Below are positions 3,664 through 43,529 of a stretch of 64,000 nucleotides of DNA, piece by piece. The notes beneath the pieces were generated by a model. That model saw only the letters and a list, made by a program, of their open reading frames with translations, was not told the origin of the DNA and made no database searches. The DNA is from Hybos culiciformis (lineage: Eukaryota; Arthropoda; Insecta; Diptera; Hybotidae): positions 82,190,598 to 82,254,597 of the forward strand of contig OZ023273.1 in the NCBI GenBank assembly GCA_964007475.1. Direction: 5' to 3'. The position numbers and the translations under genes were made by a program. The stretch's first letter is position 1. Every line of letters starts with the position of its first letter.

Positions 3664-3838
3664 TAGCCTTTTAAAAAAAAAAAAAAATAAATAAACATTT
3701 TTTTTAATAAATATAAAACGATTAGCAATAAATAAAAATAGCATATAAATATTGAAATAACAATTTCAATACAATATTTTAACTTTATTAATTTTTATTT
3801 TTAGTAAGAAAAATAATACATATACCAATTTACTACTT
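3664..3838 (+). promoter_or_regulatory. pol-env spacer with candidate env splice acceptor
   Basis: AT-rich spacer of 175 bp. A pyrimidine-rich run ending in TTTTTAG at 3798-3804 lies 34 nt before the env ATG and looks like a good 3' splice site. Errantivirus Env is made from a spliced subgenomic RNA, so this is the likely acceptor. The donor would be outside the window. Confidence 0.5.
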
Positions 3839-7810: not shown

Positions 7811-8410
7811 ATTAAGAATAAAAATCAGAAAATATAAAGCTCAATATTGATTATATTCATTTACTTTTATAAATAAATATATCGGATTCGGAATAAATTA
7901 CGATTTTAGGTTTTAATATTTAGCTTATTTAGGTGCTTAGAATTAACTGTTTTTGTACAATGGTAATATAGGGGTTATAATTAATTATTTTTAGATTTGG
8001 AATTTTAAGGAAGTAACCAAAAAGGTTTAACAATAGATCCAATGAATAATCCATGTTTTGTATCGTAGGGACTCGAATTTGTCCGTCTTTGCCTTTATGT
8101 ACCTCATTTATCCGTCCCAATCTGCAGTGGTGGTAAGTTTTCTTTCTTTATAATTACAATTTTGTCAAATTTGATTTTTTCTACTAAGAATGTTAATGGA
8201 GAGTGTTCAGGTAATTTTTACTCTACCTACTCCAAAAATATTGCCTAATTTTTTGAACTTCGTTCCATATTCTGAAGTCCGAGATTTCGAGTGGAGCTTT
8301 TTTGGAGCGTAGTTCCTTAACGGCGAAATAATAGAAAAGCTCACGTAACTGTATGTATTCTGTAAAAAAAAATAATGTATTTTATTTTTTTTTATTTTCA
8401 CCTTCCTTGA
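7811..8410. other. No gene recognised
   Basis: AT-rich sequence between the Helitron end and the G-rich minisatellite. Short open frames here have no recognisable motif. Nothing further can be supported. Confidence 0.6.
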
Positions 8411-8676
8411 AGGCGGATGTGAGGGCGGAAGTGAGGGCGGAAGTGAGGGCGGAAGTGAGGGGTTAAGTGAGGGCAAAATAAGGCGGAAGTGAGGACGGAA
8501 GAGAGGGCGGAAGTGAGGGCGGAAGTGAAGGCGGAAGTGAAGGTAAAGTAAGGACGGAAGTAAGGGCGGAAGTGAGGGCGGAAGTGAGAGCGGAAGTGAG
8601 GGCGGAAGTGAGGGCGGAAGTGAGGGCGAAGTGAGAACGGAAGTGAGGGCGAAGTGAGGGAGGAAGTGAGGGAGAA
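8411..8676 (-). repeat. 12-bp minisatellite, short array
   Basis: About 22 copies of a 12-bp unit, read on the plus strand as GAGGGCGGAAGT. It is the reverse complement of the large arrays at 43530-48649 and 60203-61220, so the family occurs in both orientations. Units vary by 1-2 bases. The frames open through it have no biological meaning. Confidence 0.9.
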
Positions 8677-9180
8677 AACTGCAGCAATTAGTCAATTTTG
8701 AATAATTGGAAATGAAAGCTCAATTTGAATTTATTGAAAATGAAAAATTTCTTATATATACGCAAAGTACCTACGTGCCTATCGGATGACAGCTCTTGCA
8801 TGTTTTTTTTTTAACAATATTGTTATTGAAGAAATTATACAGTGTATTATATTCGTTCTTAAATTTAGAAATAAACTAAACAAGTTTAAGATAATCTATA
8901 TGTCTACAATTATTTAAACTACATAAGCAACAACTATGATTTCGATTTAAGTTAACTTTTGTTATTAATAAATTGAGTATAAATAAATAAACCATTATAT
9001 ATATTTTTTTTATATAATTTAAAAAATAAATTTTTTATAATAAAAAATTGAGAGCATTTTCTATGAAAATTAAAATAACAACTGAATCAAAATCAAATAA
9101 ATTTTCTTACAATTATTAAAATGTTCATATGATTAAAAATTAGAATTAATAAAATAAACTTAAAATTAATAAATAAACCA
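8677..9180. other. No gene recognised
   Basis: About 500 bp of AT-rich DNA without coding or repeat signals that I can identify. Confidence 0.5.
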
Positions 9181-9586
9181 CTACGGCCTGTACCTCATTG
9201 TACATCATCGGCCCTATAACACCAATTCTCTGCCTCCCCAACTGTGTTCTAAATCTGTCAACCAAAAGATCCCTGTTCCTTGTATTCAAATGATGCGGAT
9301 TATTAGAAAATTAAATTGGATATTAGCCAATATTTTTAATTGATTTAAAGACAGTTGGAGTGTGAAAAGTCGGACTGTCACCTCCCCGTGGTGCCACTCG
9401 GTAACTATCTATAGAGAACACGTGCTGCTTGGGGTGCGGGTGTTTTCAAGAACTTCTGATTTTCTTCGGAGATCTTTGAGAGCCTTAACCGCTTGTGCGC
9501 TAAGGGCTGAAAGATAGGCTAACGACAGCCGCAAACGATAAAAATGGAATGGACAAGGTAAAGGAAAAAAATCGCCCGGGGATATT
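9181..9586 (+). mobile_element. LOA-like LINE, 5' fragment (continues at 38733)
   Basis: GC content rises sharply here compared with the neighbouring DNA and matches that of the LINE at 38733-42800. The fragment stops at ATAT (9583-9586), where the LTR concatemer begins, and the LINE resumes with ATAT at 38733-38736. Read as the 5' untranslated region and possibly the ORF1 start. No intact frame is present. The left edge is approximate. Confidence 0.55.
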
Positions 9587-10318
9587 GTTACTGAGAAAAA
9601 AATTTTCCTTATTAGAATTAGATCCAAAGTTATAAAATTTCATAATAAAAAAAAAAAATAACTTTTCTTTAACAAGTTAGATTTTAAAAACTTAATAAAA
9701 ATTAACATTTTAAAATTTTCTATAAAAATATAATAAAATGAAAAATAATTTATAGAAATGAAATAAATTTTCAAAACTAGAAATTTTATTCATAAATTAA
9801 ATTAAGTTTTCTCTCAAATAAAATTGATATTCACACCATGAATTTTTTTAACCAGAGCTAATTTTTTGCTTTCTATTTTTAATTTTTTTATGAACAAAAA
9901 TTTAATCAAAAATAATTCTATAATTGAATTAAATTAAAACCAAAACTCAATAAAAAAAAAAAATCTACAAAAATATTTTTATTTTTATGTTTATAGGTAC
10001 ATGCCCAACCGACAATAATTTTAAGTAATTAGAACATTTCAATTAATATAAAAAAAAAAAAAATAATAAATACTGGTTTTACCAAATGAACCTGATTTAA
10101 CTCACAGTAAACTCACCTTTAACTCAACTTTAAACAATTAAATATTGTATGATAAAACTCTTTTAACTCAACAAAACCTTATTTAAACCTAAAGTCTAGA
10201 CAGCTTATAAGGTAAACACAATAATTTCCGTTTAAAATTCTAAATAAAACAATTCAACAAAATTCTTTTTTTACAAATAAACAAATTTTTTATTCTTATA
10301 ATATAAAACAATATTTTA

Positions 10319-11008
10319 TTAGTCAGACAAATCATCTGACCCACTCTCAAAACCAGGATCCTCAATATGATAGCATCGGCAAGGAGAACACCCACATCTA
10401 CGACAATACGGGCACTTCCAAGAAAGATGACCCAACTCGCCGCAATATCTACACTCAGGAGCCACATGTGTCACAAAGTCGTGATCCACCATACAAATCC
10501 AACACATATCGCAATCAGCGATTACGTGCAGATTTCCACCACACCTTTGACACCATATTCTGGAACGATACTATAAAAAAAAAAAAAAAAAAAAAAATAA
10601 AAATAAAAATAAAAAAATAAAAAAAAAAATCATTACTTACATAAGAGTAGTTACAACTACCCTTGTGAGAATCCTTCCCACATCCATAACACTTCTTATA
10701 ATTTATAAGAAGGTCATCAATCACAACGGCAGTACATTTCCTCCAGAAATGACCCCTCATCCCACATCTCCAACAAAGCTTTCCTTCTAACAAAAAAAAT
10801 ATATATAGATATATAAAATCAAGTTTTTTTTATACCGTCCAGAAAAACAAGCGAGTTTAACTGGACCATAAAAATATTCGCTCAGCCTTAGCCAGCTAAG
10901 ACTGCGACTCAAAAAATTCATACGTATGGCCTATGCCATACTGCCGAATAAGCAAAAAAAAAAAATTAATAGAAAAATAGAATAAAACTTACCTATTCTA
11001 AACTCCAT
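10319..11008 (-). CDS. Antisense three-exon zinc-knuckle gene in LTR 1
   Basis: Exons on the minus strand: 10993-11008 (ATG and five codons), 10641-10786, and 10319-10570. Both introns (206 and 70 bp) start with GTAAGT and end in pyrimidine-rich runs before TAG. The phases join correctly (phase 1, then phase 0) to give 137 codons. AATAAA overlaps the stop (10315-10320), with a second near 10289-10294. The product is small, rich in cysteine (19) and has CX2CX4HX4C knuckles in CWRCGMRGHFWRKC, CQRCGGNLHVIADC and CRYCGELGHLSWKC, plus a CX2CX4HX3C variant and an acidic tail. Nucleic-acid binding, as in retroviral nucleocapsid or CNBP, is inferred. The role is unknown. It lies opposite to the sense of the LTR. 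Confidence 0.72.
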
Positions 11009-11144
11009 TATTTTTACTATGAATTCACAAAAAAAAAAAAATATACATATATTTATTTTAAATATTACAAAAAAAAAAAAAAAACACTTTAAAAAAAAAA
11101 AACACTTTGAAAACACTATGACACAAAAGAAAACCTTTTAACCA

Positions 11145-11184
<40 letters not shown>

Positions 11185-11697
11185 GAATGGAAAAATTCCA
11201 TAACGGCGCGCCGAACTTACAAACTAACTAGTTTTAAGATAGTTACAAAAAATGGCTTGTTAGGAAGATTTTAACTATAAGTTTATTTTAATAACTAACT
11301 TTAAATTTTAATTTTTTTCATATTGTGTTTACCACAAAACAAAAAAAAAAGTTCGATAATGAGACTTGCAACAAAACAATAAACAAAGGTCCATTATAGT
11401 AATCTTCAATACAAAAAAGGGACAAATAGTCAAGAAGCCCAACCTAATGTTACCACCTACAAGGAAAGAGCAACCTTAGAAGACAACAAATTACGAATTT
11501 GTTATTTCAAGCCCTCACAAGTAGGCAAAATAAATAAAAAAACATTTTAAAATTGTTTATATATATATATCGAAAAAGAAAAAGTTAAATTATAGATATA
11601 TATACAACTTAAAATAATACAAGAAATTTATATAAATAAAACCAATCAATGATACAAATATATTATTAAAACAAAATAGTAAATAATGATATCGGAG

Positions 11698-11855
11698 AAA
11701 TTGTAAATTATAAATTTTCAAATTATAAATTATAGATTTTCAAATTATAAATTATAGATTTTCAAATTATAAATTATAGATTTTCAAATTATAAATTATA
11801 GATTTTCAAATTATAAATTATAGAATTTCAAATTATAAATTATAAATATTAAAAT
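11698..11855 (+). repeat. 22-bp tandem repeats in LTR 1
   Basis: About six copies of TTCAAATTATAAATTATAGA-type units in the U3-like part of the LTR. The same block is present in LTR 2 (about 25355-25505) and LTR 3 (about 37960-38108). Confidence 0.85.
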
Positions 11856-12041
11856 TATTATATTATATTTTATAATAAATCCTGAAAACAGGAAATAAAA
11901 AAAAAAAAACAATCTATGTATTTTAGTAAATAATTATTTTTATATTTGCTTTCTTTCTTTTTTAATAAAAATCATACTTAAAATAACAATGTATTGTTAC
12001 TAAGAAAATCCCACAGGTCCTTAAAGGTAAATAAGAAATGC

Positions 12042-12101
12042 TGATATAAGGTCCAGCTTTAGATGGCCATAGCCATGAGCTGAAGATGACTTATTAGTCA
12101 T
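12042..12101 (+). promoter_or_regulatory. Hairpin cluster in LTR 1
   Basis: Two perfect short stems: ATGGC-CATA-GCCAT near 12063, and ATGACT-TATT-AGTCAT at 12086-12101. They occur in all three LTRs. Function unknown; they could lie in the transcribed R region. Confidence 0.4.
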
Positions 12102-12224
12102 TTAGAATTAAGTTTTTTTTTATTTTTGGAATTGGTTGGGGTTTTTTAAATATCCTTTTTCTTTGAGATCTCCTTTTTATCTTTTTTTAACGAAAGACAT
12201 CCTATTAATATTGTTATGAAACCC

Positions 12225-12423
12225 CCTGGTGTTCACTGTCCGTACCCACCCACCGACGAGCTTAGACCCAGCCTTAGAACACGGATGTCCTTAGACAGTG
12301 GACTCAACACCAGGTCACTAATTGAAAGCAGAGCACTTTCTCTTGCCTCTACTTTCACCTGTTTTCCTTTTTATCATAATTTCCTTTATGATAAATCCTT
12401 TTTATTTGAGTTCATTTGAACTC
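12225..12423 (+). promoter_or_regulatory. Structured 3' part of LTR 1 (long hairpin plus two short ones)
   Basis: Arm CCTGGTGTTCACTGTC at 12225-12240 pairs with GACAGTG (12294-12300) and AACACCAGG (12306-12314), leaving a 5-nt bulge: 16 bp in all. Two more stems follow, ATCATAA/TTATGAT (12373-12392) and GAGTTC/GAACTC (12408-12423). This resembles a TAR-like or R-U5 fold. It is repeated in LTR 3 from 38483 and lost from LTR 2. Confidence 0.5.
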
Positions 12424-12476
12424 AGATCCTTCGTAGTTTAACTACTTACAAATTTATTTAATTTTAACATAACAAA

Positions 12477-12766: not shown

Positions 12767-12834
12767 TTTCACCTTACAGTGTGAGTTCAGTATAAAATGT
12801 GGGCACAGTCCACACTGAACATGCTGGGGTGAAA
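12767..12834 (+). ncRNA. Leader hairpin 1
   Basis: Conserved core (CAGTGTG ... TATAAAATGTGGGCACAGTC ... CACACTG) closed by its own basal stem TTTCACC (12767-12773) with GGTGAAA (12828-12834). First of four such elements in the untranslated leader. The upper stem and the 3' bulge ending CATGCTGG are shared with the others. Confidence 0.65.
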
Positions 12835-12907
12835 TCCTTCAGAAAATATTCAAACCTTCTTCTACAAAGCTATACTTTATTTATGATTCTAATACTACAA
12901 GGTTTTT

Positions 12908-12987
12908 CTGTTGTCTATTCTTGCAGTGTGAGTGCAGTATAAAAAGTGGGCACAGTCCACACTGTACATGCTGGGAATGGATAACAG
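12908..12987 (+). ncRNA. Leader hairpin 2
   Basis: Same core, closed by a 13-bp basal stem, CTGTTGTCTATTC (12908-12920) with GAATGGATAACAG (12975-12987), including two G-U pairs. The stem sequence is unrelated to that of hairpin 1. Confidence 0.65.
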
Positions 12988-13035
12988 AAGGTACCATAAA
13001 CTATCTTCTTCTAAAAAAAATAAAAAAAAAAAATT

Positions 13036-13107
13036 TTTAACATCGTACAGTGCGAGTGCAGTATAAAATGTGGGCACAGTCCACACTGTACGTACTGCGA
13101 TTTTAAA
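13036..13107 (+). ncRNA. Leader hairpin 3
   Basis: Same core, closed by TTTAACATCG (13036-13045) with CGATTTTAAA (13098-13107): nine pairs and one C-U mismatch. A fourth core sequence variant (CAGTGCG) is found here. Confidence 0.6.
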
Positions 13108-13150
13108 CTTTAAATACTTGTTAAAACAAGCACATTTTTTTATTTGGAAG

Positions 13151-13218
13151 GGTTACCTTACAGTGTGAGTGCAGTATAAAATGTGGGCACAGTCCACACT
13201 GTACATGCTGGGGTAACC
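13151..13218 (+). ncRNA. Leader hairpin 4
   Basis: Same core, closed by GGTTACC (13151-13157) with GGTAACC (13212-13218), seven perfect pairs. An inner stem GTGC/GCAC is also possible. All four hairpins are missing from copy 2 because of a deletion. Confidence 0.65.
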
Positions 13219-13576: not shown

Positions 13577-15751
13577 ATGGAAACGTTAAATCTATATATA
13601 AATCCAGAACACTTGAGTATAGAAGAACTGGAATATGAATACTTAAGAAATCAGATTTCCTACTCAGATCCTCAAGCCATGAATCTATTAAAAAGATTCC
13701 TGAAAGAGGAAACTGAAAATATTCACAAAAGAATTAAAATGGCCACAACGGGGCCGAGGGGCGCGAAAGACCCACAAGAAGTCCCTAGCATAGCAAACAG
13801 TATACAAGAAGTCCCTAGCATAGCAAACAGTATACAAGAAGCAAAAGAAGTAATAAAATTGACCCAAGATCTATTAGAAAACCCTAGCTTAGAGAAATCT
13901 GAAAAATTAGCTAGTAGATTAACTCATCATAAGTATAAGCTAATTGATTTATTAGATATATACCTGGACGAAGATAACACAATAAAAAACATAATAGAGG
14001 TAATAAAAACATGTCTAAATGTAATAGAAGCTGGAAAAGAAGAAAGGATAGAACCAGAAGAAGTAATTCAAGGAGATTTAACCACTCACATCCCCGTAAA
14101 AGAGATAAACCCATCAGGGGGAGCAAAATCAAAAATAATAAGTAAGAAGGTAGAAACTCCAAGCAAGGCACAAAGAAAAATACCTTACGTAGATCCAGGC
14201 ACCGATTCAGCAACTCATGATGAAATGTGGGGACTCGGAGCATTAGGATTACCTCATAAAAATTTCGCCGAAGTAGACTGGACCAACTGGAGAAAGCCAA
14301 AACCACAACCAAAATTCCCAGCAGTAATACCAACAACTAACCTATTCAACAAAAGACTAGATCTTCCAAAATCCCCATTAATGGAACCAAAATTAAAGTA
14401 CATATCAAATAAAGTAAAAGAATACCCTCAGATCTCGCAACAGGATACAACAAAAAATGGTACTGAGAAAACAAGCGAAGAGAGGGATATAACAATGGAA
14501 AAAATTATGAATATAATAAAAGATCTGAGAGATCAAATGAATCCATTAATCATGGAGCATAGAGCTAAGCAACCGACTCCAAAAACAGAAAAAAGAAGAG
14601 CCATTAGCCCAAGCTCTAGAGCATCCACACCAACACCGCCGGAATTTAAAAGCTATCAAAGACCATCATCAAATCAGTCCATACACTCGCAAGAGGTAAA
14701 TCAACTATTCAAAGTAGAACCAAGAATAAGATCAAGTACAAGAGAGAGAGAATATAGATCACCTCCAATGAGAGAAGTAAGAACAGGAGCTTACAGGCGA
14801 AGACAACAGGAAGAGCAAAGACAACCAGAAGAACATAGATATACAAGAGAGTTGGATCTAAAGAAAAGATTCGGATTGTTCTTCAACGGAGACGAAGTAG
14901 AAAACTTCGTGAAAGACGTGGACAGTCAAAGGATTGACCACAATATCTCCGATAGAGTCCTGATAAACAACTTTCACCAACTCTTGGATCCGACAGTAAA
15001 GAAATGGTATTTTGGATACTTTAGAACCCATGACAAAATTGAAACTTCATGGAGAACATTCAGCTCGGCACTGATAAATGAATATGCGGAAGCTCTAGAT
15101 GAGGACTTAAAAATCACAGAGCTAATTAATAGGAAACAAAAAATGGGCGAGACATGGCGTGAGTTTATACAAGCAATGAATGCTTTGAACCAAAAACTGG
15201 ACGAGCCACTGAATGAAAGACGGCTAACCAATAGAATAAAACTCAACGTAAGAAGAGAGTATAAGGAACCTCTTCAAGCAGTAGAAGTTGAGAATTTAAC
15301 AGCACTGCGAAACAAGTTCAGACTGATTGATGCAGGTAGAGAAACAAAAGCGTCCTACCGAGCAAATCAGGACGAACAAGGATATGCCAGGGCAAACAAC
15401 GACCGAAATAGGTACAGAGTACAGGAAATACAGTACGAAGACGATTACCCGTACGAAGAAAGCTATAATGATTACTACGAAGTAGAAGCAATACAAAATA
15501 TACCGAAACAACAAAATAACATAAACAATAACAGAAAAAAATTAGAAGACCAGCAAAAACCCAAACAGCAATCCAGACCAGGTACACCTGAAAGTAATTT
15601 GAGATGCTGGAGCTGCGAAGTTCCTGGACACGCATTCATGGACTGTCCAGCTACATACCGACGAATCTTCTGCTACAGGTGCGGAATGATGAACGAAGTA
15701 GCACCAACTTGCGGAAACTGCCATAAAACAGTTCGCTTTCAGGGAAACTGA
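13577..15751 (+). CDS. gag: Gag polyprotein, copy 1
   Basis: A 724-codon frame with a good start context (AAAATGG). The N-terminal part is charged and holds an exact 30-bp tandem duplication (PSIANSIQEV repeated) near 13780-13841. A basic, proline/serine-rich middle is followed by a capsid-like segment (about residues 435-600; LDLKKRFGLFFNGDEVE, FHQLLDPTVKKWYFGY) typical of gypsy Gag. Near the end is a zinc knuckle CWSCEVPGHAFMDC and a second one, CYRCGMMNEVAPTC, in which the histidine position is glutamate. The stop TGA at 15749-15751 directly follows the GGGAAAC frameshift site. Role: particle formation and RNA binding, inferred from position and motifs. Confidence 0.88.
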   Translation: METLNLYINPEHLSIEELEYEYLRNQISYSDPQAMNLLKRFLKEETENIHKRIKMATTGPRGAKDPQEVPSIANSIQEVPSIANSIQEAKEVIKLTQDLLENPSLEKSEKLASRLTHHKYKLIDLLDIYLDEDNTIKNIIEVIKTCLNVIEAGKEERIEPEEVIQGDLTTHIPVKEINPSGGAKSKIISKKVETPSKAQRKIPYVDPGTDSATHDEMWGLGALGLPHKNFAEVDWTNWRKPKPQPKFPAVIPTTNLFNKRLDLPKSPLMEPKLKYISNKVKEYPQISQQDTTKNGTEKTSEERDITMEKIMNIIKDLRDQMNPLIMEHRAKQPTPKTEKRRAISPSSRASTPTPPEFKSYQRPSSNQSIHSQEVNQLFKVEPRIRSSTREREYRSPPMREVRTGAYRRRQQEEQRQPEEHRYTRELDLKKRFGLFFNGDEVENFVKDVDSQRIDHNISDRVLINNFHQLLDPTVKKWYFGYFRTHDKIETSWRTFSSALINEYAEALDEDLKITELINRKQKMGETWREFIQAMNALNQKLDEPLNERRLTNRIKLNVRREYKEPLQAVEVENLTALRNKFRLIDAGRETKASYRANQDEQGYARANNDRNRYRVQEIQYEDDYPYEESYNDYYEVEAIQNIPKQQNNINNNRKKLEDQQKPKQQSRPGTPESNLRCWSCEVPGHAFMDCPATYRRIFCYRCGMMNEVAPTCGNCHKTVRFQGN

Positions 15752-18700
15752 TTTCCCAATCTGTAGAGAGGCCGTCTACAGATTTTAACCAAGGCCAAAA
15801 CCTGTTTCAAACAACCAAATACGAAACAATAAAAAGTAAAAATGAAAATTTAGAAAAACAACAAGAAATCATAGAAAATGAAAATATTGTAAACAAATTA
15901 GAAAAAACTGAAAAAGAAAATACTGAAAAAAAACAAGAAATCATAGAAAATGAAAATATTGAAAACAAATTAGAAAAAACTGAAAAAGAAAATACTGAAA
16001 AAAAACAAGAAATCATAGGAAATGAAAACATAAAAATAACCGGAATACTGAAAAGAACCAAAAGTGAAGAAACAATAAAAAAGGAGAAAAAGCAATGGCC
16101 TCCTTATCATATAAGAAAACAACGATATGATAAGAAGAGGGCAGAGATAGTCACTTTCAATAATGTTAGTGAAGTACGACTAAATACAAAAAAAAACAGG
16201 AAATCAAAAAAGTCGATACGAAAGAGCAAATATTATAGGAAAGCGAGAGAAGACAGGAAAAGGATTCTTTCAGCGGTTATAAAAATGCCCCAGGATAATA
16301 GACCATACGCGAGAATCCAAATAGGAAGGAAAACTCTAACAGGACTATTGGATTCAGGCGCGTCAATTTCTTGTATAGGAAAGGATATACAATGGATTCA
16401 AGAAAATACCAACTGCAAAATACATAAAATTAAAGACACTTTGTTAACTGCAGCAGGAAATAAAACACAGATTATAGGATATATTTTAGTACCAATATTT
16501 TTTAACAATATCTCCAAAATTCTAAAAATCCATGTTGTACCAAAGTTATCACAAGAATTATATCTTGGCGTTAACTTTTGGACAGAATTTAATTTAGCAC
16601 CGCAAATTTTCAAACAAATAGAAGAAATATCTCAAATAGACCCCAACACTCACCAGTTAGACTTAAATGACCAGTTAGAATTGGAAGCAATAAAAAGGAT
16701 GTTTCCATCCTACGCGGTCGAAGGATTAGGTTGCACAGACTTAGAAGAACACGTGATAGACACCGAAGACAATGAACCGGTTAAACAAAAGCATTACCCA
16801 CTCTCCCCTGCCATCCAAAATTTAATGTACGCCGAAGTAGACAGAATGCTGGAAATGGGCGTCATAGAAGAAAGCAATAGTGCTTGGACATCCCCTGTAG
16901 TGCTAGTAAGAAAGCCAGGTAAAAACCGTTTATGTTTAGATTCACGAAAAGTGAATGAATTGACAAAAAAGGACGCGTACCCATTACCAAATATTCAAGG
17001 CTTATTAGCACGTATAGATAAAACCAAGTACATAAGTAGTATTGACTTAAAAGACGCATTCTGGCAAATTCCGTTAGAAAAGAAATCGCGAGAAAAGACT
17101 ACATTTGCAATCCCCGGTAGACCGCTCTATCAATACACACGTATGCCTTTCGGACTTTGTAACGCAGCCCAACGCATGTGTCGACTCATGGATAAAGTGA
17201 TTCCTCAACATTTAAAGGAAGAGGTAAAGGTTTACTTAGCCGATTTAATGGTGGCAACAGATACAAAAAAACGCCACTTTCAACTTCTAAAAGAAGTTGC
17301 GATCGCTCTAAGAAAAGCAAACCTCACAATAAATGTTGAGAAATCGAAATTTTTCATGAAAGAAATTAAATATCTAGGATATTTAACGGCGAGAACGGTA
17401 CAAAACCCGACCCAGGAAAAATATCTGCAATCTCAGAATATCCGGAACCGAAATCCTTGAAACAAACTAGGCGATTCTTAGGCATGACAGGATGGTTCCA
17501 AAGACTGATTAAAGACTATTCCTTAATAGTAGCACCCATAACTGACTGTTTAAAAATTAAAAATTCTGACAATAAATTCAAGTTTACAAAAGAAGCGAGG
17601 GAAGCTTTCCAGAAAATCAAAGAAATTTTAATTTCAGAACCTATTCTCATCCCCCCCGACTATTCTAAAGAATTCTTTATACAAACCGATGCCAGTCAAT
17701 TAGGCATAGGAGCAGTCATATTTCAATATGACGATGAAAACAATGAACACCCTGTAGCTTACATGTCCAAAAAATTCAATGATACACAATCTAGATGGGC
17801 AGCTACGGAACAAGAATGCTTCGCAGTAGTTGAGGCAATCAAAAAGTTCCGTATGTACGTGGAAGGTGTAAAATTCACCGTACTGACAGATTGTGCCGCA
17901 TTGAAATGGCTAATGACCTGTAAAGATCACCACGGAAAACTTTTCCGATGGTCATTGAAACTACAGGCATTCGAATTTGACATTCTACACAGGGCAGGAA
18001 AGAAAAATGTAGTAGCAGACACCCTGTCAAGATCCTTTGGAATAGAAGAGATCACAGCAAGATGTCCAGATTTAGACCTAGAATCAGGCGCTTTCGAATC
18101 CGAAAAATATAAAGAAATCAGGGAAACAATAGAAGACAATCAGAATAGTTTACCAGATTTGAAATTAGTGGAAAATAAAATATTCAAAAGAATGGAATTC
18201 AGAAAAGAACAGGATGATTCAGAGCTGAATCTTTGGCGACTATGGGTTCCGGAAGAACTGGTGTCAGAAGTAATTAAAAATAACCATGATCCCCCACATT
18301 CAGCCCATGGAGGGTTACGAAAAACACTGTACCGAATAAGGACAAAATATTATTGGCCACGAATGTATTCGGATGTAAAAAACTACATACAAAACTGCAA
18401 AATTTGTAAAGAAACCAAACCAACCAACAAAATCTTAAGACCTCCGATGGGAGAAAAACAAATCCCTCAAAGACCCTTTCAACATCTATACATAGACTTT
18501 TTAGGACCCTACCCAAGATCGCGATCTGGTAATACATGTATTTTCATCATATTAGATTCCTTCTCAAAATATGTGATAATCAAACCATTGCGTAAAGCGA
18601 ACACAGCAAACGCGATAAAAGTGTTAGACGAAGCTTTCAGTTTGTTCGGATGTCCCGAAAGTATCCTAAGCGACAATGGAACTCCTCTCGTGTCAAAAGA

Positions 18701-19294
18701 CTTCGAATCTTACTTGCAAAACTATGGAATAGAACACAAATTAACCGCTTTTTACGCACCACAAGCAAACGCGAGCGAAAGGGTTAATGGGTCTATTTTA
18801 AATGCAATAAGAGCCTATATAGACGACAAGCAATATAACTGGGACGGCGATCTAGACAGCATAAGCACAGCTCTTCGTTCTAGCGTGCATGAAGCGACAG
18901 GGATGTCACCATATTACATCCTGTTTGGACAACACATGATAACTCATGGTAGTTCATTTAAATTGCTGAAAAAAAATTGCTAGAAATACTACCTCCTCCA
19001 GGATCCTTCCAAATCATAAAAGATATAGTAAAACGTAATTTGGAAAAAGCAAAAGAGAAAGGAAGAAAGTTGTATAACAGAAAATGCAAAAACATTAGGT
19101 ATAAAATAGGTCAGACCGTCTACAGAAGAAATTTTGCTCAAAGTGACTTTAGCAAACATTTCAACGCGAAGTTAGGAAAAAAATTCGTGCCGTGTTTAGT
19201 ATTAAGAATCATAGGCAATAGTATATATGAGGTCAAAGACTTAGTAGGGAAAAATGCTATCGGAAGATACCACGCGAAAGATCTAAAAATCTAA
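15727..19294 (+). pseudogene. pol: Pol polyprotein, copy 1 (two frame breaks, RT active site altered)
   Basis: Read after -1 frameshifting. A linker with a 72-bp in-frame tandem repeat (rich in K, E and N; about 15850-16020) precedes protease (LLDSGASIS, 16351-16362), RT, RNase H (IQTDAS near 17690), and integrase (HHCC near 18290-18410; DFLGP, SDNGTP and ASERVN). The frame breaks at about 17407 (one base too many in CAAAACCCGAC) and again at about 18970 (A8 run); homology continues across both. The RT catalytic box reads YLAD at 17233-17244 instead of YLDD, a change of the first essential aspartate. This copy is therefore expected to be enzymatically dead. The A8 break could also be a sequencing error, though it is in both copies. 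Confidence 0.85.
15742..15781 (+). promoter_or_regulatory. -1 frameshift signal, copy 1: GGGAAAC plus hairpins
   Basis: G GGA AAC (15742-15748) sits in phase immediately before the Gag stop, and a -1 slip enters the pol frame, which is open from 15727. The site is itself the left arm of GGGAAA-CTGA-TTTCCC. A second perfect stem, CTGTAGA/TCTACAG with a 7-nt loop, lies at 15761-15781. Its loop contains GGCC, which could pair with GGCC near 15792 to form a pseudoknot. Confidence 0.72.
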
Positions 19295-20056: not shown

Positions 20057-22351
20057 ATGTGTAAAGATCTGTTAAGCTGTGTAGGAATATCCATGTCATG
20101 GATGACACAGCCAGTAACTTTTTTTTTGTACCTTGTAGGTTCAATACTAGCTTTATTTTTATTTTTATTCTTATTACTAACCTTTTTCCAAATAAGAAAC
20201 TACTGCTTATTGAGACAGGTTATGTTACTAGCGACTTTAATTCCGGTAAATTCAAGTATAGTCCTAGTACAAAACTTATACAGACCAACATACGAAGACA
20301 CAGAACTCAATGCATACCCATTATACGAAAAACAAATTGAAATCTATGCGACAAAAGTCCTGGAATATAGCCACATTTACCCAATTTTTGGAAAATCTTT
20401 GAGAGATATTAACCTTATTCATAATTGTCCAAACGGAATACTAGTACCACCGATTTTGACACCAAATGTCACTAGTATAGCCCTAAATAATAATAAACTA
20501 AGTCCAATTAGCTTAGTTTCACCTCAGATTTCTAGGAATAGCAATCACAAAGAAATTAAAAGAGAATTAACCCACAATGAAAAATTCAATTTAAAAATGT
20601 TGGAAATCTTATATCCCATAACTAAAGATTGGGAAATTCAGCCCCGTCATAACGATGACCTAATTTTAGAATAGTTCTGTGAAGAACCCTCCATAGAAAT
20701 TCAATTCGATCAACACAAAATCACAGAAAACTTCAATAATTTACCCCTGATTGGAATGATAAATTCCATTGAATTCAAAGACAAATTCAAAAACTGTGAA
20801 ACCTCGTTATGTGAAGTAGGTTTAAAAGGGCTGCTGAATCTATATAAAAATCTGAAAACCCAACCCCTTAGAAAGAAAAGAGATACAGAAGAAAGAGAAG
20901 GGTGTACCTCCTTTAGCATTCTAGGGAAATGGGGTATAAACTTCGATAATTGTAACATAGATCTTAAATTGTTCAAAAACGATTTAGAAAATACAAAACA
21001 CGAAATAAATCAATACAAATCACTAATCTTAAACCACACTAAAATAGCTAGTGATTTATTTCAGAAGACAGAAAAAATAATAATACAAATAACTAGGCAA
21101 CAAGATTTATTAGAAAAACACATCCATGACAAATATCTGACAACACAACACACAATACAAGTTATAAAATTAATAGCCGACCTAAAGATGTGGAAACTTG
21201 ATCAAAAACATCAAGCACAACACATCCTTTCCCTCACAAAAGCAAGAGCTATGGAACTATTCCAATCTCTAAAACAATCTTTATACTTGCATCAATGGAT
21301 AGGTAAATGTATTGCTACAAAAGATTGCAAGGAAATAAACAAGTTTCTAAATAAAAAAATTGTTTATTGGTCAGATTTATTATCCCATAATTTCAATCCC
21401 CACCCCACTCTGATATATAAAGACCATACCCCTTACTTTGTCTTCACAACCCCTACTGAAGTACAATGGGAATTACTCCCAACTTTAATTCTTCCATCCT
21501 TAGAAATTAACTCCGGATGCATCCCGTTAGAAAACTCCCTTTTTCTTTGTAACAAATGTTACAAACAAGAATTCAAATTTCTAACAGGAAATTTTAATAA
21601 TACCAATAAACATTTAAAAATTCACGAAAACTCAACTGGAATAATAAATAATATAGAATCATTAGAAAAATGTATTTCCAATAAAGGAAATACAGAAGCT
21701 AAACTTAAGCTGAAAGACAAATGCCTCTCGATAAGCGAGAAAGGTATAGCTATCATCCCCTATTGTGAAGAAGAAAATCAGATAAAAATAGATAAAATTA
21801 TAACCCAATTTCATTTCCAAGAAATTCCAGAAGCATTATCCTTCAGGAATCACACTTTAGACAGGATTCTATTAGAAAATTTTCAAGTAAACTTCACTAA
21901 TCTCAAAAATAATTTCACATACAAAAGTTTGGTAAAAACCTTAACCCAAAAAACTTCAGAATTAGCAGATTTATCTCTGCATTTTAAACCACATATGATA
22001 GCTATACATAATACGAATCTAGCTTTTAACTTAATAAATCTAGTAATGATAATAAGTATAGTAGCATATCATTTACTTACAAGATTCATGCAAGTTAGAA
22101 AAAAAAACCCAAATCCGTCCACAAATAATATCCTTCACAATTCAACAAACACACAAACAGAAGACAAAAAACTTTTTTTTGAATTCTTCGGCACAGAAGA
22201 GAATAGTAACAAGACACAAAAATACGAAATACAGACAATAAGCGGTAGTAACTATAAACTAACTAACGAAGTACTAATAGTACAAGATGAGCAAAATAAA
22301 TCGTTACGGAAGTTTCACAATGTGAAAAATTTTCAATGTTTAAAAAAATAA
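20057..22351 (+). pseudogene. env: Env-like glycoprotein, copy 1 (one in-frame TAG)
   Basis: The frame is open from 20012. The first ATG is at 20057 and a strongly hydrophobic segment follows (LALFLFLFLLLTFF), a likely signal or anchor. A TAG at 20672-20674 interrupts the frame, which then continues unchanged to 22351; copy 2 has the same stop. Features after the stop: a furin-type RKKR at 20870-20881, a cysteine-containing stretch directly after it, a helical region, a cysteine-rich middle (CNKCYK), N-glycosylation sites, a membrane segment near 22020-22085 (INLVMIISIVAYHLL), and a tail of about 85 residues. Position after pol and this layout indicate an envelope protein, but the sequence is not close to the errantivirus Env at 3839. 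Confidence 0.7.
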
Positions 22352-22544: not shown

Positions 22545-23021
22545 ATGTCCGACAACGCAAGTAACAAATTTATCGGTAAAATAACCACCAGTTCCGGAAA
22601 ACCCAGATGGTACACAGAAGAAGAAGGCCCAAAGCCAATAGACAGCGAAAAATTTAATAAAAGAAAACGAGCAAAGGAGCCACAAGTACCAATCATGGAT
22701 GAACCACCAAAACTCCTGAAGTTAACTCCAAAAGTAACACCCAGAGTAAAGGAAGAAGAAGGGCTCAATCCGACCCCAATGTTGAAAGCAATTTTTGCCG
22801 GAGTTGAAATAGGCCCAACCCAAATTGGATCCAGTTATCGTTTCAAGATACCAGGACCCTTATCAATGATCCAAGCAGAAGTAAAAAAGAATGGCAAAAC
22901 AATTCTGAAATGTAACAAAACAGGAGCAGTCAAAATAACGGATAAAGGGATCGTAAAAATATTTCCCGGAACAACAGAAAAACAGAAGAGTTCTGCAGTG
23001 AAACACCACTACGAAAAATAG
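22545..23021 (+). CDS. Accessory ORF of unknown function, copy 1
   Basis: 158 codons between env and the following LTR, kept open in both copies (one D/E difference by eye). I do not recognise the protein. It starts MSDNASNK, has a basic KRKRAK stretch near residues 39-44 that could be a nuclear signal, a proline-rich segment, and a more compact C-terminal half (AGVEIGPTQIGSSYRFKI). Many complex retroviruses place small regulatory genes here, so a regulatory role is possible but is inference. No clear splice acceptor was found just upstream. Confidence 0.6.
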   Translation: MSDNASNKFIGKITTSSGKPRWYTEEEGPKPIDSEKFNKRKRAKEPQVPIMDEPPKLLKLTPKVTPRVKEEEGLNPTPMLKAIFAGVEIGPTQIGSSYRFKIPGPLSMIQAEVKKNGKTILKCNKTGAVKITDKGIVKIFPGTTEKQKSSAVKHHYEK

Positions 23022-23241: not shown

Positions 23242-24226
23242 TGTTACTGAGAAAAAAATTTTCCTTATTAGAATTAGATCCAAAGTTATAAAATTTCATA
23301 ATAAAAAAAAAAAATAACTTTTCTTTAACAAGTTAGATTTTAAAAACTTAATAAAAATTAACATTTTAAAATTTTCTATAAAAATATAATAAAATGAAAA
23401 ATAATTTATAGAAATGAAATAAATTTTCAAAACTAGAAATTTTATTCATAAATTAAATTAAGTTTTCTCTCAAATAAAATTGATATTCACACCATGAATT
23501 TTTTTAACCAGAGCTAATTTTTTGCTTTCTATTTTTAATTTTTTTATGAACAAAAATTTAATCAAAAATAATTCTATAATTGAATTAAATTAAAACCAAA
23601 ACTCAATAAAAAAAAAAAATCTACAAAAATATTTTTATTTTTATGCTTATAGGTACATGCCCAACCGACAATAATTTTAAGTAATTAGAACATTTCAATT
23701 AATATAAAAAAAAAAAAATAATAAATACTGGTTTTACCAAATGAACCTGATTTAACTCACAATAAACTCACCTTTAACTCAACTTTAAACAATTAAATAT
23801 TGTATGATAAAACTCTTTTAACTCAACAAAACCTTATTTAAACCTAAAGTCTAGACAGCTTATAAGGTAAACACAATAATTTCCGTTTAAAATTCTAAAT
23901 AAAACAATTCAACAAAATTCTTTTTTTACAAATAAACAAATTTTTTATTCTTATAATATAAAACAATATTTTATTAGTCAGACAAATCATCTGACCCACT
24001 CTCAAAACCAGGATCCTCAATATGATAGCATCGGCAAGGAGAACACCCACATCTACGACAATACGGGCACTTCCAAGAAAGATGACCCAACTCGCCGCAA
24101 TATCTACACTCAGGAGCCACATGTGTCACAAAGTCGTGATCCACCATACAAATCCAACACATATCGCAATCAGCGATTACGTGCAGATTTCCACCACACC
24201 TTTGACACCATATTCTGGAACGATAC

Positions 24227-24260
<34 letters not shown>

Positions 24261-24800
24261 AAAATAAAAAAATAAAAAAAAAAAATCATTACTTACATAA
24301 GAGTAGTTACAACTACCCTTGTGAGAATCCTTCCCACATCCATAACACTTCTTATAATTTATAAGAAGGTCATCAATCACAACGGCAGTACATTTCCTCC
24401 AGAAATGACCCCTCATCCCACATCTCCAACAAAGCTTTCCTTCTAACAAAAAAAATATATATAGATATATAAAATCAAGTTTTTTTTATACCGTCCAGAA
24501 AAACAAGCGAGTTTAACTGGACCATAAAAATATTCGCTCAGCCTTAGCCAGCTAAGACTGCGACTCAAAAAAATTCATACGTATGGCCTATGCCATACTG
24601 CCGAATAAGCAAAAAAAAAAAAAATTAATAGAAAAATAGAATAAAACTTACCTATTCTAAACTCCATTATTTTTACTATGAATTCACAAAAAAAAAAAAT
24701 ATATATATTTATTTTAAATATTACAAAAAAAAAAAAAAAACACTTTAAAAAAAAAAAACACTTTGAAAACACTATGACACAAAAGAAAACCTTTTAACCA

Positions 24801-24838
<38 letters not shown>

Positions 24839-25832
24839 GAATGGAAAAATTCCATAACGGCGCGCCGAACTTACAAACTAACTAGTTTTAAGATAGTTAC
24901 AAAAAATGGCTTGTTAGGAAGATTTTAACTATAAGTTTATTTTAATAACTAACTTTAAAATTTAATTTTTTTCATATTGTGTTTACCACAAAACAAAAAA
25001 AAAAGTTCGATAATGAGACTTGCAACAAAACAATAAACAAAGGTCCATTATAGTAATCTTCAATACAAAAAAGGGACAAATAGTCAAGAAGCCCAACCTA
25101 ATGTTACCACCTACAAGGAAAGAGCAACCTTAGAAGACAACAAATTACGAATTTGTTATTTCAAGCCCTCACAAGTAGGCAAAATAAATAAAAAAACATT
25201 TTAAAATTGTTTATATATATATATCGAAAAAGAAAAAGTTAAATTATAGATATATATACAACTTAAAATAATACAAGAAATTTATATAAATAAAACCAAT
25301 CAATGATACAAATATATTATTAAAACAAAATAGTAAATAATGATATCGGAGAAATTGTAAATTATAAATTTTCAAATTATAAATTATAGATTTTCAAATT
25401 ATAAATTATAGATTTTCAAATTATAAATTATAGATTTTCAAATTATAAATTATAGATTTTCAAATTATAAATTATAGAATTTCAAATTATAAATTATAAA
25501 TATTAAAATTATTATATTATATTTTATAATAAATCCTGAAAACAGGAAATAAAAAAAAAAAAAACAATCTATGTATTTTAGTAAATAATTATTTTTATAT
25601 TTGCTTTCTTTCTTTTTTAATAAAAATCATACTTAAAATAACAATGTATTGTTACTAAGAAAATCCCACAGGTCCTTAAAGGTAAATAAGAAATGCTGAT
25701 ATAAGGTCCAGCTTTAGATGGCCATAGCCATGAGCTGAAGATGACTTATTAGTCATTTAGAATTAAGTTTTTTTTATTTTTTGAATTGGTTGGGGTTTTT
25801 CAAATATCCTTTTTCTTTGAGATCTCCTTTTT
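23242..25832 (+). repeat. LTR 2 of the concatemer (3' end deleted)
   Basis: Matches LTR 1 from TGTTACTGAG until about 25828, then jumps to sequence that in copy 1 lies just before gag (about 13236). The deletion removes about 1.05 kb: the end of the LTR with its hairpins, the primer site, the splice donor and all four leader hairpins. Confidence 0.88.
23974..24667 (-). CDS. Antisense three-exon zinc-knuckle gene in LTR 2
   Basis: Same gene as in LTR 1: exons 24652-24667, 24297-24442 and 23974-24225 on the minus strand, same splice sites and lengths (16, 146, 252 nt), differing from the first mainly in intron A/T-run length. The deletion at the end of this LTR does not touch it. Confidence 0.72.
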
Positions 25833-35836: not shown

Positions 35837-37394
35837 TGTTACTGAGAAAAAAATTTTCCTTATTAGAATTAGATCCAAAGTTATAAAATTTCATAATAAA
35901 AAAAAAAAATAACTTTTCTTTAACAAGTTAGATTTTAAAAACTTAATAAAAATTAACATTTTAAAATTTTCTATAAAAATATAATAAAATGAAAAATAAT
36001 TTATAGAAATGAAATAAATTTTCAAAACTAGAAATTTTATTCATAAATTAAATTAAGTTTTCTCTCAAATAAAATTGATATTCACACCATGAATTTTTTT
36101 AACCAGAGCTAATTTTTTGCTTTCTATTTTTAATTTTTTTATGAACAAAAATTTAATCAAAAATAATTCTATAATTGAATTAAATTAAAACCAAACCTCA
36201 ATAAAAAAAAAAAATCTACAAAAATATTTTTATTTTTATGCTTATAGGTACATGCCCAACCGACAATAATTTTAAGTAATTAGAACATTTCAATTAATAT
36301 AAAAAAAAAAAAATAATAAATACTGGTTTTACCAAATGAACCTGATTTAACTCACAACAAACTCACCTTTAACTCAACTTTAAACAATTAAATATTGTAT
36401 GATAAAACTCTTTTAACTCAACAAAACCTTATTTAAACCTAAAGTCTAGACAGCTTATAAGGTAAACACAATAATTTCCGTTTAAAATTCTAAATAAAAC
36501 AATTCAACAAAATTCTTTTTTTACAAATAAACAAATTTTTTATTCTTATAATATAAAACAATATTTTATTAGTCAGACAAATCATCTGACCCACTCTCAA
36601 AACCAGGATCCTCAATATGATAGCATCGGCAAGGAGAACACCCACATCTACGACAATACGGGCACTTCCAAGAAAGATGACCCAACTCGCCGCAATATCT
36701 ACACTCAGGAGCCACATGTGTCACAAAGTCGTGATCCACCATACAAATCCAACACATATCGCAATCAGCGATTACGTGCAGATTTCCACCACACCTTTGA
36801 CACCATATTCTGGAACGATACTATAAAAAAAAAAAAAAAAAAAAAAAAAAATAAAAATAAAAAAATAAAAAAAAAAAATCATTACTTACATAAGAGTAGT
36901 TACAACTACCCTTGTGAGAATCCTTCCCACATCCATAACACTTCTTATAATTTATAAGAAGGTCATCAATCACAACGGCAGTACATTTCCTCCAGAAATG
37001 ACCCCTCATCCCACATCTCCAACAAAGCTTTCCTTCTAACAAAAAAAATATATATAGATATATAAAATCAAGTTTTTTTTATACCGTCCAGAAAAACAAG
37101 CGAGTTTAACTGGACCATAAAAATATTCGCTCAGCCTTAGCCAGCTAAGACTGCGACTCAAAAAAATTCATACGTATGGCCTATGCCATACTGCCGAATA
37201 AGCAAAAAAAAAAAAAATTAATAGAAAAATAGAATAAAACTTACCTATTCTAAACTCCATTATTTTTACTATGAATTCACAAAAAAAAAAAAAATATATA
37301 TTTATTTTAAATATTACAAAAAAAAAAAAAAAACACTTTAAAAAAAAAAAAACACTTTGAAAACACTATGACACAAAAGAAAACCTTTTAACCA

Positions 37395-37442
<48 letters not shown>

Positions 37443-38732
37443 GAATGGAAAAATTCCATAACGGCGCGCCGAACTTACAAACTAACTAGTTTTAAGATAG
37501 TTACAAAAAATGGCTTGTTAGGAAGATTTTAACTATAAGTTTATTTTAATAACTAACTTTAAATTTTAATTTTTTTCATATTGTGTTTACCACAAAACAA
37601 AAAAAAAAGTTCGATAATGAGACTTGCAACAAAACAATAAACAAAGGTCCATTATAGTAATCTTCAATACAAAAAAGGGACAAATAGTCAAGAAGCCCAA
37701 CCTAATGTTACCACCTACAAGGAAAGAGCAACCTTAGAAGACAACAAATTACGAATTTGTTATTTCAAGCCCTCACAAGTAGGCAAAATAAATAAAAAAA
37801 CATTTTAAAATTGTTTATATATATATATCGAAAAAGAAAAAGTTAAATTATAGATATATATACAACTTAAAATAATACAAGAAATTTATATAAATAAAAC
37901 CAATCAATGATACAAATATATTATTAAAACAAAATAGTAAATAATGATATCGGAGAAATTGTAAATTATAAATTTTCAAATTATAAATTATAGATTTTCA
38001 AATTATAAATTATAGATTTTCAAATTATAAATTATAGATTTTCAAATTATAAATTATAGATTTTCAAATTATAAATTATAGAATTTCAAATTATAAATTA
38101 TAAATATTAAAATTATTATATTATATTTTATAATAAATCCTGAAAACAGGAAATAAAAAAAAAAAAAACAATCTATGTATTTTAGTAAATAATTATTTTT
38201 ATATTTGCTTTCTTTCTTTTTTAATAAAAATCATACTTAAAATAACAATGTATTGTTACTAAGAATATCCCACAGGTCCTTAAAGGTAAATAAGAAATGC
38301 TGATATAAGGTCCAGCTTTAGATGGCCATAGCCATGAGCTGAAGATGACTTATTAGTCATTTAGAATTAAGTTTTTTTTATTTTTTGAATTGGTTGGGGT
38401 TTTTCAAATATCCTTTTTCTTTGAGATCTCCTTTTTATCTTTTTTTAACGAAAGACATCCTATTAATATTGTTATGAAACCCCCTGGTGTTCACTGTCCG
38501 TACCCACCCACCGACGAGCTTAGACCCAGCCTTAGAACACGGATGTCCTTAGACAGTGGACTCAACACCAGGTCACTAATTGAAAGCAGAGCACTTTCTC
38601 TTGCCTCTACTTTCACCTGTTTTCCTTTTTATCATAATTTCCTTTATGATAAATCCTTTTTATTTGAGTTCATTTGAACTCAGATCCTTCGTAGTTTAAC
38701 TACTTACAAATTTATTTAATTTTAACATAACA
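35837..38732 (+). repeat. LTR 3 of the concatemer (complete)
   Basis: 2.9 kb from TGTTACTGAG to AACATAACA, followed by ATAT, which repeats the 4 bases before LTR 1. Contains the antisense gene, the 22-bp repeats (about 37960-38108) and the 3' hairpins (from 38483). At several sites it agrees with LTR 2 against LTR 1. Confidence 0.88.
36569..37260 (-). CDS. Antisense three-exon zinc-knuckle gene in LTR 3
   Basis: Third copy: exons 37245-37260, 36890-37035 and 36569-36820 on the minus strand, with the same splice sites and exon lengths as the other two. In a 3' LTR an antisense promoter would read toward env, the arrangement known for HTLV-type antisense genes, although here the whole gene lies inside the LTR. 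Confidence 0.72.
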
Positions 38733-43330: not shown

Positions 43331-43529
43331 TTTTCGATAGAATAAAAATTGTTTTAAATCTCTGAACCTAAAACCTTCTTTCACGTGCATTTCCAATATG
43401 CATTTCCTAAAAACATGTCCTCATAAATTTTGGTTTTTCAGTCATTTTTGTTATGGATTCGTTCTTTAAAATTGAGTTTTTGAATAATACTAACCATAGC
43501 TCCCCATCCAAAATTTTTGATCAGGTAAT
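43331..43529. other. Left flank of the minisatellite
   Basis: About 200 bp, AT-rich. Its last 35 bp (TAGCTCCCCATCCAAAATTT ... CAGGTAAT, ending near 43528) resemble the sequence just right of the other end of the array (61255-61288). Confidence 0.5.

What the first reader, a model, noticed from the sequence alone, without database searches (positions are those of the whole stretch)
10319..11008. Spliced antisense zinc-knuckle gene inside every LTR
On the strand opposite to the retroelement, each LTR contains three exons with GTAAGT donors, pyrimidine-rich acceptors, correct phases and an AATAAA at the stop, encoding a protein with three standard CX2CX4HX4C knuckles plus variants. One of these knuckles (CQRCGGNLHVIADC) begins right after the second splice junction and is seen only in the spliced frame, which makes chance unlikely. 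Antisense genes are known in HTLV and HIV, but an intron-containing gene fully inside LTRs of an insect gypsy element is new to me. It could regulate sense transcription or package RNA.
Basis: partly seen in the sequence, partly recalled or inferred. Interest (0 to 1): 0.88.

Follow-up and report, generated by a model that had tools for sequence, protein, structure and literature searches.

The report
Selected antisense gene inside retroelement LTRs
The long end-repeats of a virus-like mobile element in this genome carry, on the opposite DNA strand, a predicted three-exon gene for a small zinc-knuckle protein that selection has kept readable in most of the diverged copies examined, so these repeats likely make their own RNA-binding regulator, which would matter because such repeats are usually regarded as switches rather than genes.

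Summary
All three LTRs in the window carry, antisense to gag-pol, identical exons for a 137-aa protein with three canonical CX2CX4HX4C knuckles. In the same 342-Mb genome the gene's DNA matches 51 places, a diverged relative's 72, fragments included. Twenty clade-A copies are all open; 17 of 20 keep GT/AG at all four splice sites. Clade B (~50% identical) and one clade-C copy (45%) keep intron 2 and the Cys/His pattern. dN/dS is 0.034-0.091 within clade B and 0.085-0.32 within clade A. Twenty-four of 62 gag loci have the gene 5' of gag, antisense; 20 have it on both sides. A sister element without the gene transposed recently (LTRs 100% alike after rounding), so the gene is not needed in cis. 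I conclude a genuine, selected antisense accessory gene, likely in U3; a trans-acting nucleic-acid-binding regulator is my best guess. Transcription, splicing and function are untested. Nearest precedents: HTLV HBZ and a claimed antisense gene in the HIV-1 LTR.

The parts
9586..12474 (+). LTR 1 (TGTTA...TAACA), preceded by ATAT target duplication at 9582-9585; PBS TGGCGCCCAACGTGG follows at 12477
   Evidence: self-BLAST and alignment
23242..25832 (+). LTR 2, shared by the tandem elements, its 3' end and leader deleted (continues at the equivalent of 13236)
35837..38732 (+). LTR 3, followed by ATAT target duplication
10993..11008 (-). antisense exon 1 (ATGGAGTTTAGAATAG, donor GTAAGT)
   Evidence: a noncoding exon with GTAAGT donor stands at this place in most clade-B copies read
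10641..10786 (-). antisense exon 2, knuckles CWRCGMRGHFWRKC and CYGCGKDSHKGSC, donor GTAAGT
10319..10570 (-). antisense exon 3, knuckles CQRCGGNLHVIADC and CRYCGELGHLSWKC, stop TAA
10822..10955 (-). conserved block in intron 1 that folds into three hairpins
   Evidence: z -4.5 antisense, -4.2 sense
24652..24667 (-). exon 1 in LTR 2
24297..24442 (-). exon 2 in LTR 2
23974..24225 (-). exon 3 in LTR 2
37245..37260 (-). exon 1 in LTR 3
36890..37035 (-). exon 2 in LTR 3
36569..36820 (-). exon 3 in LTR 3
11980..12474 (+). 3' part of the LTR, found in gene-plus and gene-minus LTRs; inferred sense promoter, R and U5, which would put the gene in U3
   Evidence: U3/R/U5 borders inferred
13577..15751 (+). 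gag (724 aa) with its own knuckle CWSCEVPGHAFMDC
16285..18983 (+). pol, in two frames (protease-RT, then RNase H-integrase)
   Evidence: first frame; second frame
20756..22351 (+). env-like ORF with a basic RKKR site and a C-terminal hydrophobic stretch (identity inferred)
   Evidence: no Pfam support

Best explanation
Each LTR of this Ty3/gypsy-type element carries, on the strand opposite to gag-pol, a predicted three-exon gene whose 137-residue zinc-knuckle protein is held by purifying selection, and this protein likely acts in trans as a nucleic-acid-binding accessory regulator of the element. Shown: conserved exons, splice dinucleotides, Cys/His pattern, low dN/dS, antisense position 5' of gag and in LTR pairs, and a recently transposed sister element that lacks the gene. 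Inferred: a Pol II antisense promoter in the LTR drives a spliced mRNA; the gene sits in U3, so the one copy in the genomic RNA's 3' U3 becomes two by reverse transcription; the introns survive retrotransposition because in the genomic RNA they lie in the unspliceable orientation; the knuckles bind element RNA (perhaps the hairpin block of intron 1, or the sense RNA's complementary 3' U3) and modulate its expression, packaging or silencing. Because the gene is not required in cis, one element's protein would serve or restrain others.
For: Exons intact in 3 of 3 window LTRs; GT/AG at all four sites in 17 of 20 other clade-A copies, frame open in 20 of 20, both plus three canonical knuckles in 12 of 20 (in L021 and L027 the last part of exon 3 is unrelated sequence; many of the 20 are near-identical members of one family). 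Purifying selection: dN/dS 0.085-0.32 over the 10 pairs of five clade-A representatives and 0.034-0.091 over the 15 pairs of six clade-B copies. 11 of 12 representatives have the coding frame open over both exons, the twelfth (L016) being stopped by its own terminator; other frames are open in 0-3 of 12. Clades B and C keep intron 2 at the same place (within one residue in C) and the Cys/His of the modules. Position: 24 of 62 gag loci have a copy within 16 kb 5', each antisense to gag, 16 of the 24 at 2.4-3.0 kb; 20 of 62 also have one within 25 kb 3'. Third-position T 48% in the gene mirrors third-position A 49% in gag, as expected for long residence in the element. zf-CCHC matches in 8 of 8 family members at E <= 0.1; the best PDB profile hits are retroviral nucleocapsids and Air2. 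Trans action: gene-minus LTR pair C1:68485189 and C1:68498330 around an open gag, 100% alike after rounding, differing from a gene-plus LTR by a ~980-b segment.
Against: No transcript, splicing or protein was observed. All homologues come from one genome; none was found among 5.8 billion proteins (candidates must share three 5-residue words) or in IMG/VR, sources that would show such a gene exon by exon at best. 38 of 62 gag loci have no copy within 16 kb 5' in the lists I used (these lists are lower bounds and I left fragments out). In 15 of 20 fetched stretches near gags no gene was found (L062 was mis-aimed and L046 stops short of its LTR; in L053 and L054 only exon 2 was found). zf-CCHC is just under Pfam's cut-off in the window's protein (20.2 against 20.8). 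With the single sequence the top PDB hits were complement receptor (E 5e-4), which I take for Cys-rich chance. An earlier dN/dS pass on nucleotide projections (28 pairs) ran up to 0.62, the pairs with L027 (0.29-0.62) being raised by its unrelated 3' end. A gene-minus element that transposes may equally mean the gene is dispensable. Broken or damaged copies exist: L009 and L010 lost the GT of donor 2, L012 the AG of acceptor 1, L014 has a poor donor 1, and L029, L031, L032, L034, L043, L064 have stops, indels or deletions.
Confidence: 0.6

Rival explanations
1. The antisense RNA, not the protein, is what matters: it pairs with the sense RNA's U3 and feeds siRNA or piRNA silencing, and the reading frame is a relic.
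For: Antisense retroelement RNAs with possible regulatory roles are discussed for plant and fly elements (PMC7264820, passages); the sense RNA's 3' U3 would be complementary; a structured block in intron 1 is conserved.
Against: dN/dS 0.034-0.32 and conserved Cys/His while synonymous sites saturate between clades are selection on the protein; intron 2 and flanks drift.
Confidence: 0.08
2. The protein is an NC-like structural or packaging factor: it goes into particles beside Gag as an extra nucleic-acid chaperone.
For: Best PDB profile matches are retroviral nucleocapsid knuckles; weak similarity to the element's own Gag knuckle (BLASTP E 3e-4 for the single pair).
Against: Gag already has a knuckle; similarity is confined to the knuckles; an antisense, separately regulated unit is an odd place for a structural protein; a gene-minus element transposed, although it could be helped in trans.
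Confidence: 0.2
3. The protein counters host silencing (piRNA or siRNA) by binding double-stranded or small RNA.
For: Accessory position, strong constraint and nucleic-acid-binding modules; antisense transcription would itself provoke dsRNA, so a protector made from that RNA would pay (inference).
Against: No similarity to any protein beyond zinc knuckles was found.
Confidence: 0.12
4. A host gene fragment captured into one LTR and carried as a passenger, without use for the element.
For: An intron-bearing antisense cassette is what transduction of a host gene could give; a host homologue could not be searched for.
Against: A passenger would not show dN/dS 0.03-0.3 over diverged copies, and third positions carry the element's own base bias.
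Confidence: 0.03
5. Chance: an open frame with cysteines and splice-like signals in AT-rich DNA.
For: GTAAGT is common on the minus strand of this AT-rich window (26 against 5 on the plus strand).
Against: 0 of 5000 exon shuffles stop-free, 0 of 1000 LTR shuffles with one canonical knuckle, conservation over ~50% protein divergence.
Confidence: 0.01

Closest known systems
HTLV-1 HBZ (antisense, spliced, starts in the 3' LTR)
   Same: Antisense to gag-pol, spliced, transcripts begin in the 3' LTR and the first exon lies there; inhibits sense activation by Tax (PMC1459196, abstract).
   Different: HBZ is a bZIP protein and, as I recall, its main exon lies outside the LTR; here the whole coding sequence is inside the LTRs and encodes zinc knuckles. 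Transcription is shown for HBZ, not here.
Claimed antisense gene in the U3-R of the HIV-1 LTR (HIV antisense proteins, HAPs)
   Same: A gene for antisense RNA and protein located within an LTR (PMC1654176, abstract).
   Different: The abstract mentions no introns, no zinc knuckles and no test of selection; starts in TAR DNA. Transcript and protein are reported there, not here.
Antisense additional ORFs (aORF-3R) of plant LTR retrotransposons: Grande gene23, RIRE2, Retand
   Same: Conserved antisense accessory ORF of an LTR retrotransposon, supposed regulatory (PMC7264820, passages).
   Different: Those lie between pol and the 3' LTR and show no clear similarity to database proteins; here the gene is within the LTR, in exons and introns, with zinc knuckles.
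MMTV Sag (recalled, no call)
   Same: A protein gene reaching into a retroviral LTR.
   Different: Sense strand, superantigen; no relation known to me.
Retroviral nucleocapsid / Gag CCHC knuckles and Air2-type knuckle proteins
   Same: CX2CX4HX4C modules; best PDB profile hits, zf-CCHC in 8 of 8.
   Different: Not part of Gag, antisense, several modules of mixed spacing, no similarity outside the knuckles.

Membership tests
zinc-knuckle (zf-CCHC, PF00098) proteins | CX2CX4HX4C motif | tested here: met
   three exact motifs per window copy, conserved in clades B and C
zinc-knuckle (zf-CCHC, PF00098) proteins | Pfam gathering score reached | tested here: inconclusive
   20.2 bits against 20.8 for the window's protein; 8 of 8 members match at E <= 0.1
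retroviral antisense accessory genes (HBZ, ASP type) | coding frame antisense to gag-pol, conserved by selection | tested here: met
retroviral antisense accessory genes (HBZ, ASP type) | antisense transcript from an LTR promoter | not testable with these tools
   no RNA data held
HBZ family by descent | bZIP domain | tested here: not met
   no such match in Pfam
plant-type aORF-3R | located between pol and the 3' LTR | tested here: not met
   located inside the LTRs
Ty3/gypsy LTR element with env (errantivirus-like) | LTRs, PBS, gag, protease-RT-RNase H-integrase, env | tested here: inconclusive
   LTRs with ATAT duplication, RVP and RVT_1, gypsy-type pol relatives; env-like ORF had no Pfam support
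Osvaldo/Ulysses/Woot group of insect gypsy elements | RT phylogeny within that group; long LTRs, tRNA-Lys PBS (recalled) | not tested
   PBS TGGCGCCCAACGTGG seen; no reference sequences used

The most novel reading that the evidence does not exclude
The LTR itself is a self-contained gene locus: an intron-bearing antisense regulator cassette that sits in U3, is doubled at every reverse transcription, can live on in solo LTRs, is swapped between co-resident element families independently of gag, and governs the whole family in trans, so that gene-minus elements are cheaters or dependants of gene-plus ones.
Probability: 0.4. Interest if true: 0.92.

Novelty: new variant of a known kind. Interest (0 to 1): 0.8.

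Why it matters
Antisense proteins of retroviruses have long been contested; HBZ is the well-studied one and an antisense gene in the HIV-1 LTR has been claimed. My searches showed no complete multi-exon antisense gene inside the LTRs of an animal LTR retrotransposon, though they cover only an open-access library. Here the protein-coding case rests on selection, not on an open frame alone. If it is expressed, the LTR is a gene-bearing module that can outlive its provirus; one genome offers gene-plus and gene-minus elements side by side; and the old question of how retroelements regulate themselves in trans becomes directly testable.

Tried and rejected
Homologue searches in the protein database with the spliced protein and with exon 3 alone, and in IMG/VR with the protein, a pol profile and the family profile, found nothing; a gene in short exons is poorly visible there. 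Rfam gave one hit for the LTR and leader, far below its cut-off (22 against 108 bits). AlphaFold2 on exon 3 with 11 family members gave mean pLDDT 52, too low for a fold search. Covariation of the intron-1 hairpins could not be judged: six distinct clade-A variants besides the window's, nearly invariant, and in two of them (L012, L013) hairpin C is broken. A host origin could not be tested because the genome-wide protein search never ran. Whether clade C (L047) has a second copy in its 3' LTR is untested for the same reason. Literature searches. For dN/dS I used the window and 4 of the 20 clade-A copies (L010 with a lost donor and L013 with one His lost among them), 6 clade-B copies and L047.

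Full report
What is there. The window holds LTR - internal - LTR - internal - LTR of a Ty3/gypsy-type element: LTR 1 9586-12474, LTR 2 from 23242 with its 3' end and the leader deleted, LTR 3 35837-38732, TGTTA...TAACA ends, ATAT on both outer sides, and TGGCGCCCAACGTGG (a tRNA-Lys-type primer site, recalled) after LTR 1. Gag is at 13577-15751, pol in two frames at 16285-18983, an env-like ORF at 20756-22351 and a further ORF at 22545-23021. The second pol frame has 205 relatives; the species-named ones among the 120 listed are from flies and a moth. The host is not identified.

The antisense gene. On the minus strand of each LTR three exons join to 137 codons with GTAAGT donors and pyrimidine-rich acceptors, identical in the three LTRs. 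Knuckles: CWRCGMRGHFWRKC, CYGCGKDSHKGSC (three residues before the last Cys), CQRCGGNLHVIADC, a CX2C...H...H...EC module, and CRYCGELGHLSWKC. In six frames of the 64 kb, canonical knuckles occur only here and once in each gag. Shuffles do not reproduce it: 0 of 1000 LTR shuffles with one knuckle, 0 of 1000 shuffles of the gene stretch with two (mean 0.002), 0 of 5000 exon shuffles stop-free.

Copies in the genome. The window lies in a 342-Mb genome. The gene's DNA matched 51 places there and a clade-B gene 72 places; these lists are lower bounds and include fragments. I fetched 20 clade-A copies and 14 weaker matches, 20 stretches near other gags and six clade-B genes. Of the 20 clade-A copies all have the frame open to at least 131 aa, 17 have GT/AG at all four sites, and 12 have these and three canonical knuckles; many are near-identical members of one family, and in L021 and L027 the end of exon 3 is unrelated sequence. 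In 5 of the 20 stretches near other gags the gene was found, in two of them exon 2 only.

Selection. Nei-Gojobori on spliced frames gives dN/dS 0.085-0.32 within clade A (10 pairs of five representatives) and 0.034-0.091 within clade B (15 pairs of six copies, dS 0.18-2.07); between clades synonymous sites are saturated or nearly so. An earlier pass on nucleotide projections of eight copies (28 pairs) ran from 0 to 0.62, highest with L027, whose 3' end is unrelated. Damaged copies (L029, L031, L032, L034, L043, L064) were not used; L010 (lost donor GT) and L013 (one His lost) were. A control over all frames: 11 of 12 representatives open in the coding frame, the twelfth (L016) stopped only by its own terminator, at most 3 of 12 open in any other frame. 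Windows wholly inside exons 2 and 3 are 0.80-1.00 identical among five clade-A representatives, against 0.60-0.62 in intron 2 and 0.57-0.68 in the flanks. Third-position T (48%) mirrors third-position A in gag (49%), so the gene has probably lived long in the element.

Gene structure over time. In clade B (about 50% identical to the window's protein) exon 1 is noncoding (...GGTGAAATAG|GTAAGT), the start codon lies in exon 2, intron 2 is at the same place, and a further intron leads to a tiny exon 4. Clade C (one copy, L047, 45% identical, upstream of a gag 58% identical) has the same four-exon plan. Most invariant residues of the eight-member alignment are Cys, His, Gly, Trp and Arg of the modules.

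Position. Of 62 gag loci, 24 have the gene within 16 kb on the 5' side, each antisense to gag, 16 of these at 2.4-3.0 kb; 20 of 62 also have it within 25 kb on the 3' side, as LTR pairs would. Three copies in the other orientation lie more than 22 kb away beside other elements. 38 of 62 have none on the 5' side in these incomplete lists. Gene and gag histories disagree: gags 84% and 86% like the window's (C2:50537878, C1:87341596) go with clade-B genes, while gags 67% alike (C2:59210650 and others) go with clade-A genes 88% alike. LTR modules thus seem to be exchanged among families (inference).

Gene-minus elements. L044, L045 and L061, upstream of open gags 66-67% identical, have LTRs without the gene. 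L045 lacks a ~980-base segment that holds the gene and little else. Its two LTRs (C1:68485189 and C1:68498330) are 100% alike after rounding, so it transposed recently without the gene in cis. Continuous matches over the spot suggest further gene-minus LTR pairs (C1:20991413/20998732, C1:93142319/93165561). Either the gene works in trans or it can be spared. The 3' LTR part from about 11980 is common to gene-plus and gene-minus LTRs, so I infer that the sense promoter lies there and the gene in U3.

How it most likely works. Shown: coding, selection, position. Inferred: antisense Pol II transcription in the LTR, splicing, translation, RNA binding by the knuckles, action in trans. The antisense orientation explains why introns survive a life cycle through RNA, and the U3 position why both LTRs, and any solo LTR, would keep the gene. 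Intron 1 holds a three-hairpin block, strongly folded (z -4.5 antisense, -4.2 sense) and, for the window against other clade-A copies, more conserved than synonymous sites; one hairpin recurs in L031-L034, L063-L066 and L068 but not in L043, L056/L067 or L047. It may be a binding site for the protein or a promoter element; this is open.

Compared with what is known. HTLV HBZ is the nearest parallel in layout (PMC1459196, abstract and section list). An antisense gene in the U3-R of the HIV-1 LTR, with transcript and proteins, has been claimed (PMC1654176, abstract and section list); so an antisense gene inside an LTR is not new as an idea. Plant antisense additional ORFs are the nearest in retrotransposons (PMC7264820, passages). 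A review of retroviral antisense genes (PMC8622228, 12 of 14 places) and a survey of fly endogenous retroviruses (PMC12992720, 12 of 15 places) named no such gene of an insect element in the passages shown. Passages on Woot were seen in PMC2397513 and PMC13245856; all other papers in search listings only. My searches for such a gene in print were made; they do not prove absence.

Verdict. The feature is real and under selection (I would say 0.97); the trans-acting nucleic-acid-binding regulator is the best mechanism I can offer (about 0.6). It is a new variant of a known kind, retroelement antisense accessory genes, with a combination I have not seen described: a whole intron-bearing gene inside the LTRs of a gypsy-type element, a zinc-knuckle product, and conservation shown by dN/dS.

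Noticed in passing
window 12775-13215: Four tandem copies of a hairpin-forming unit (CAGTGTGAG...GGGCACAGTCCACACTGTACATGCTG) in the leader between primer site and gag, possibly a packaging signal; two copies folded, z only -1.3 and -2.2.
   Followed up: partly
window 10822-10955: Three-hairpin block in intron 1, strongly conserved in clade A; two of the changes seen keep a G-U pair only in the antisense RNA, another (L012, L013) breaks hairpin C.
   Followed up: partly
G000:C1:77603480-77608530: Tandem array of about six copies of a clade-B gene segment at 774-809-base spacing.
   Followed up: no
G000:C1:68485189-68500159: Element with open gag whose two LTRs (100% alike after rounding) lack the antisense gene.
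   Followed up: yes
G000:C2:59215502, C2:50563339, C1:44869063, C87:43492, C2:26355153: Clade-A element family with about 17 kb between LTRs, some 3-4 kb more than the window's; the extra internal sequence was not examined.
   Followed up: no
window 22545-23021: 158-aa basic ORF between env-like ORF and 3' LTR, no Pfam match; may be another accessory gene.
   Followed up: no
window 160-6058: A second, different gypsy-type element with pol (1167 aa) and an env-like ORF with an RRSRRG site.
   Followed up: no
window 43489-48700 and 60203-61230: Large 12-base-period satellite reading as VRAE repeats, also inverted at 8408-8678.
   Followed up: no
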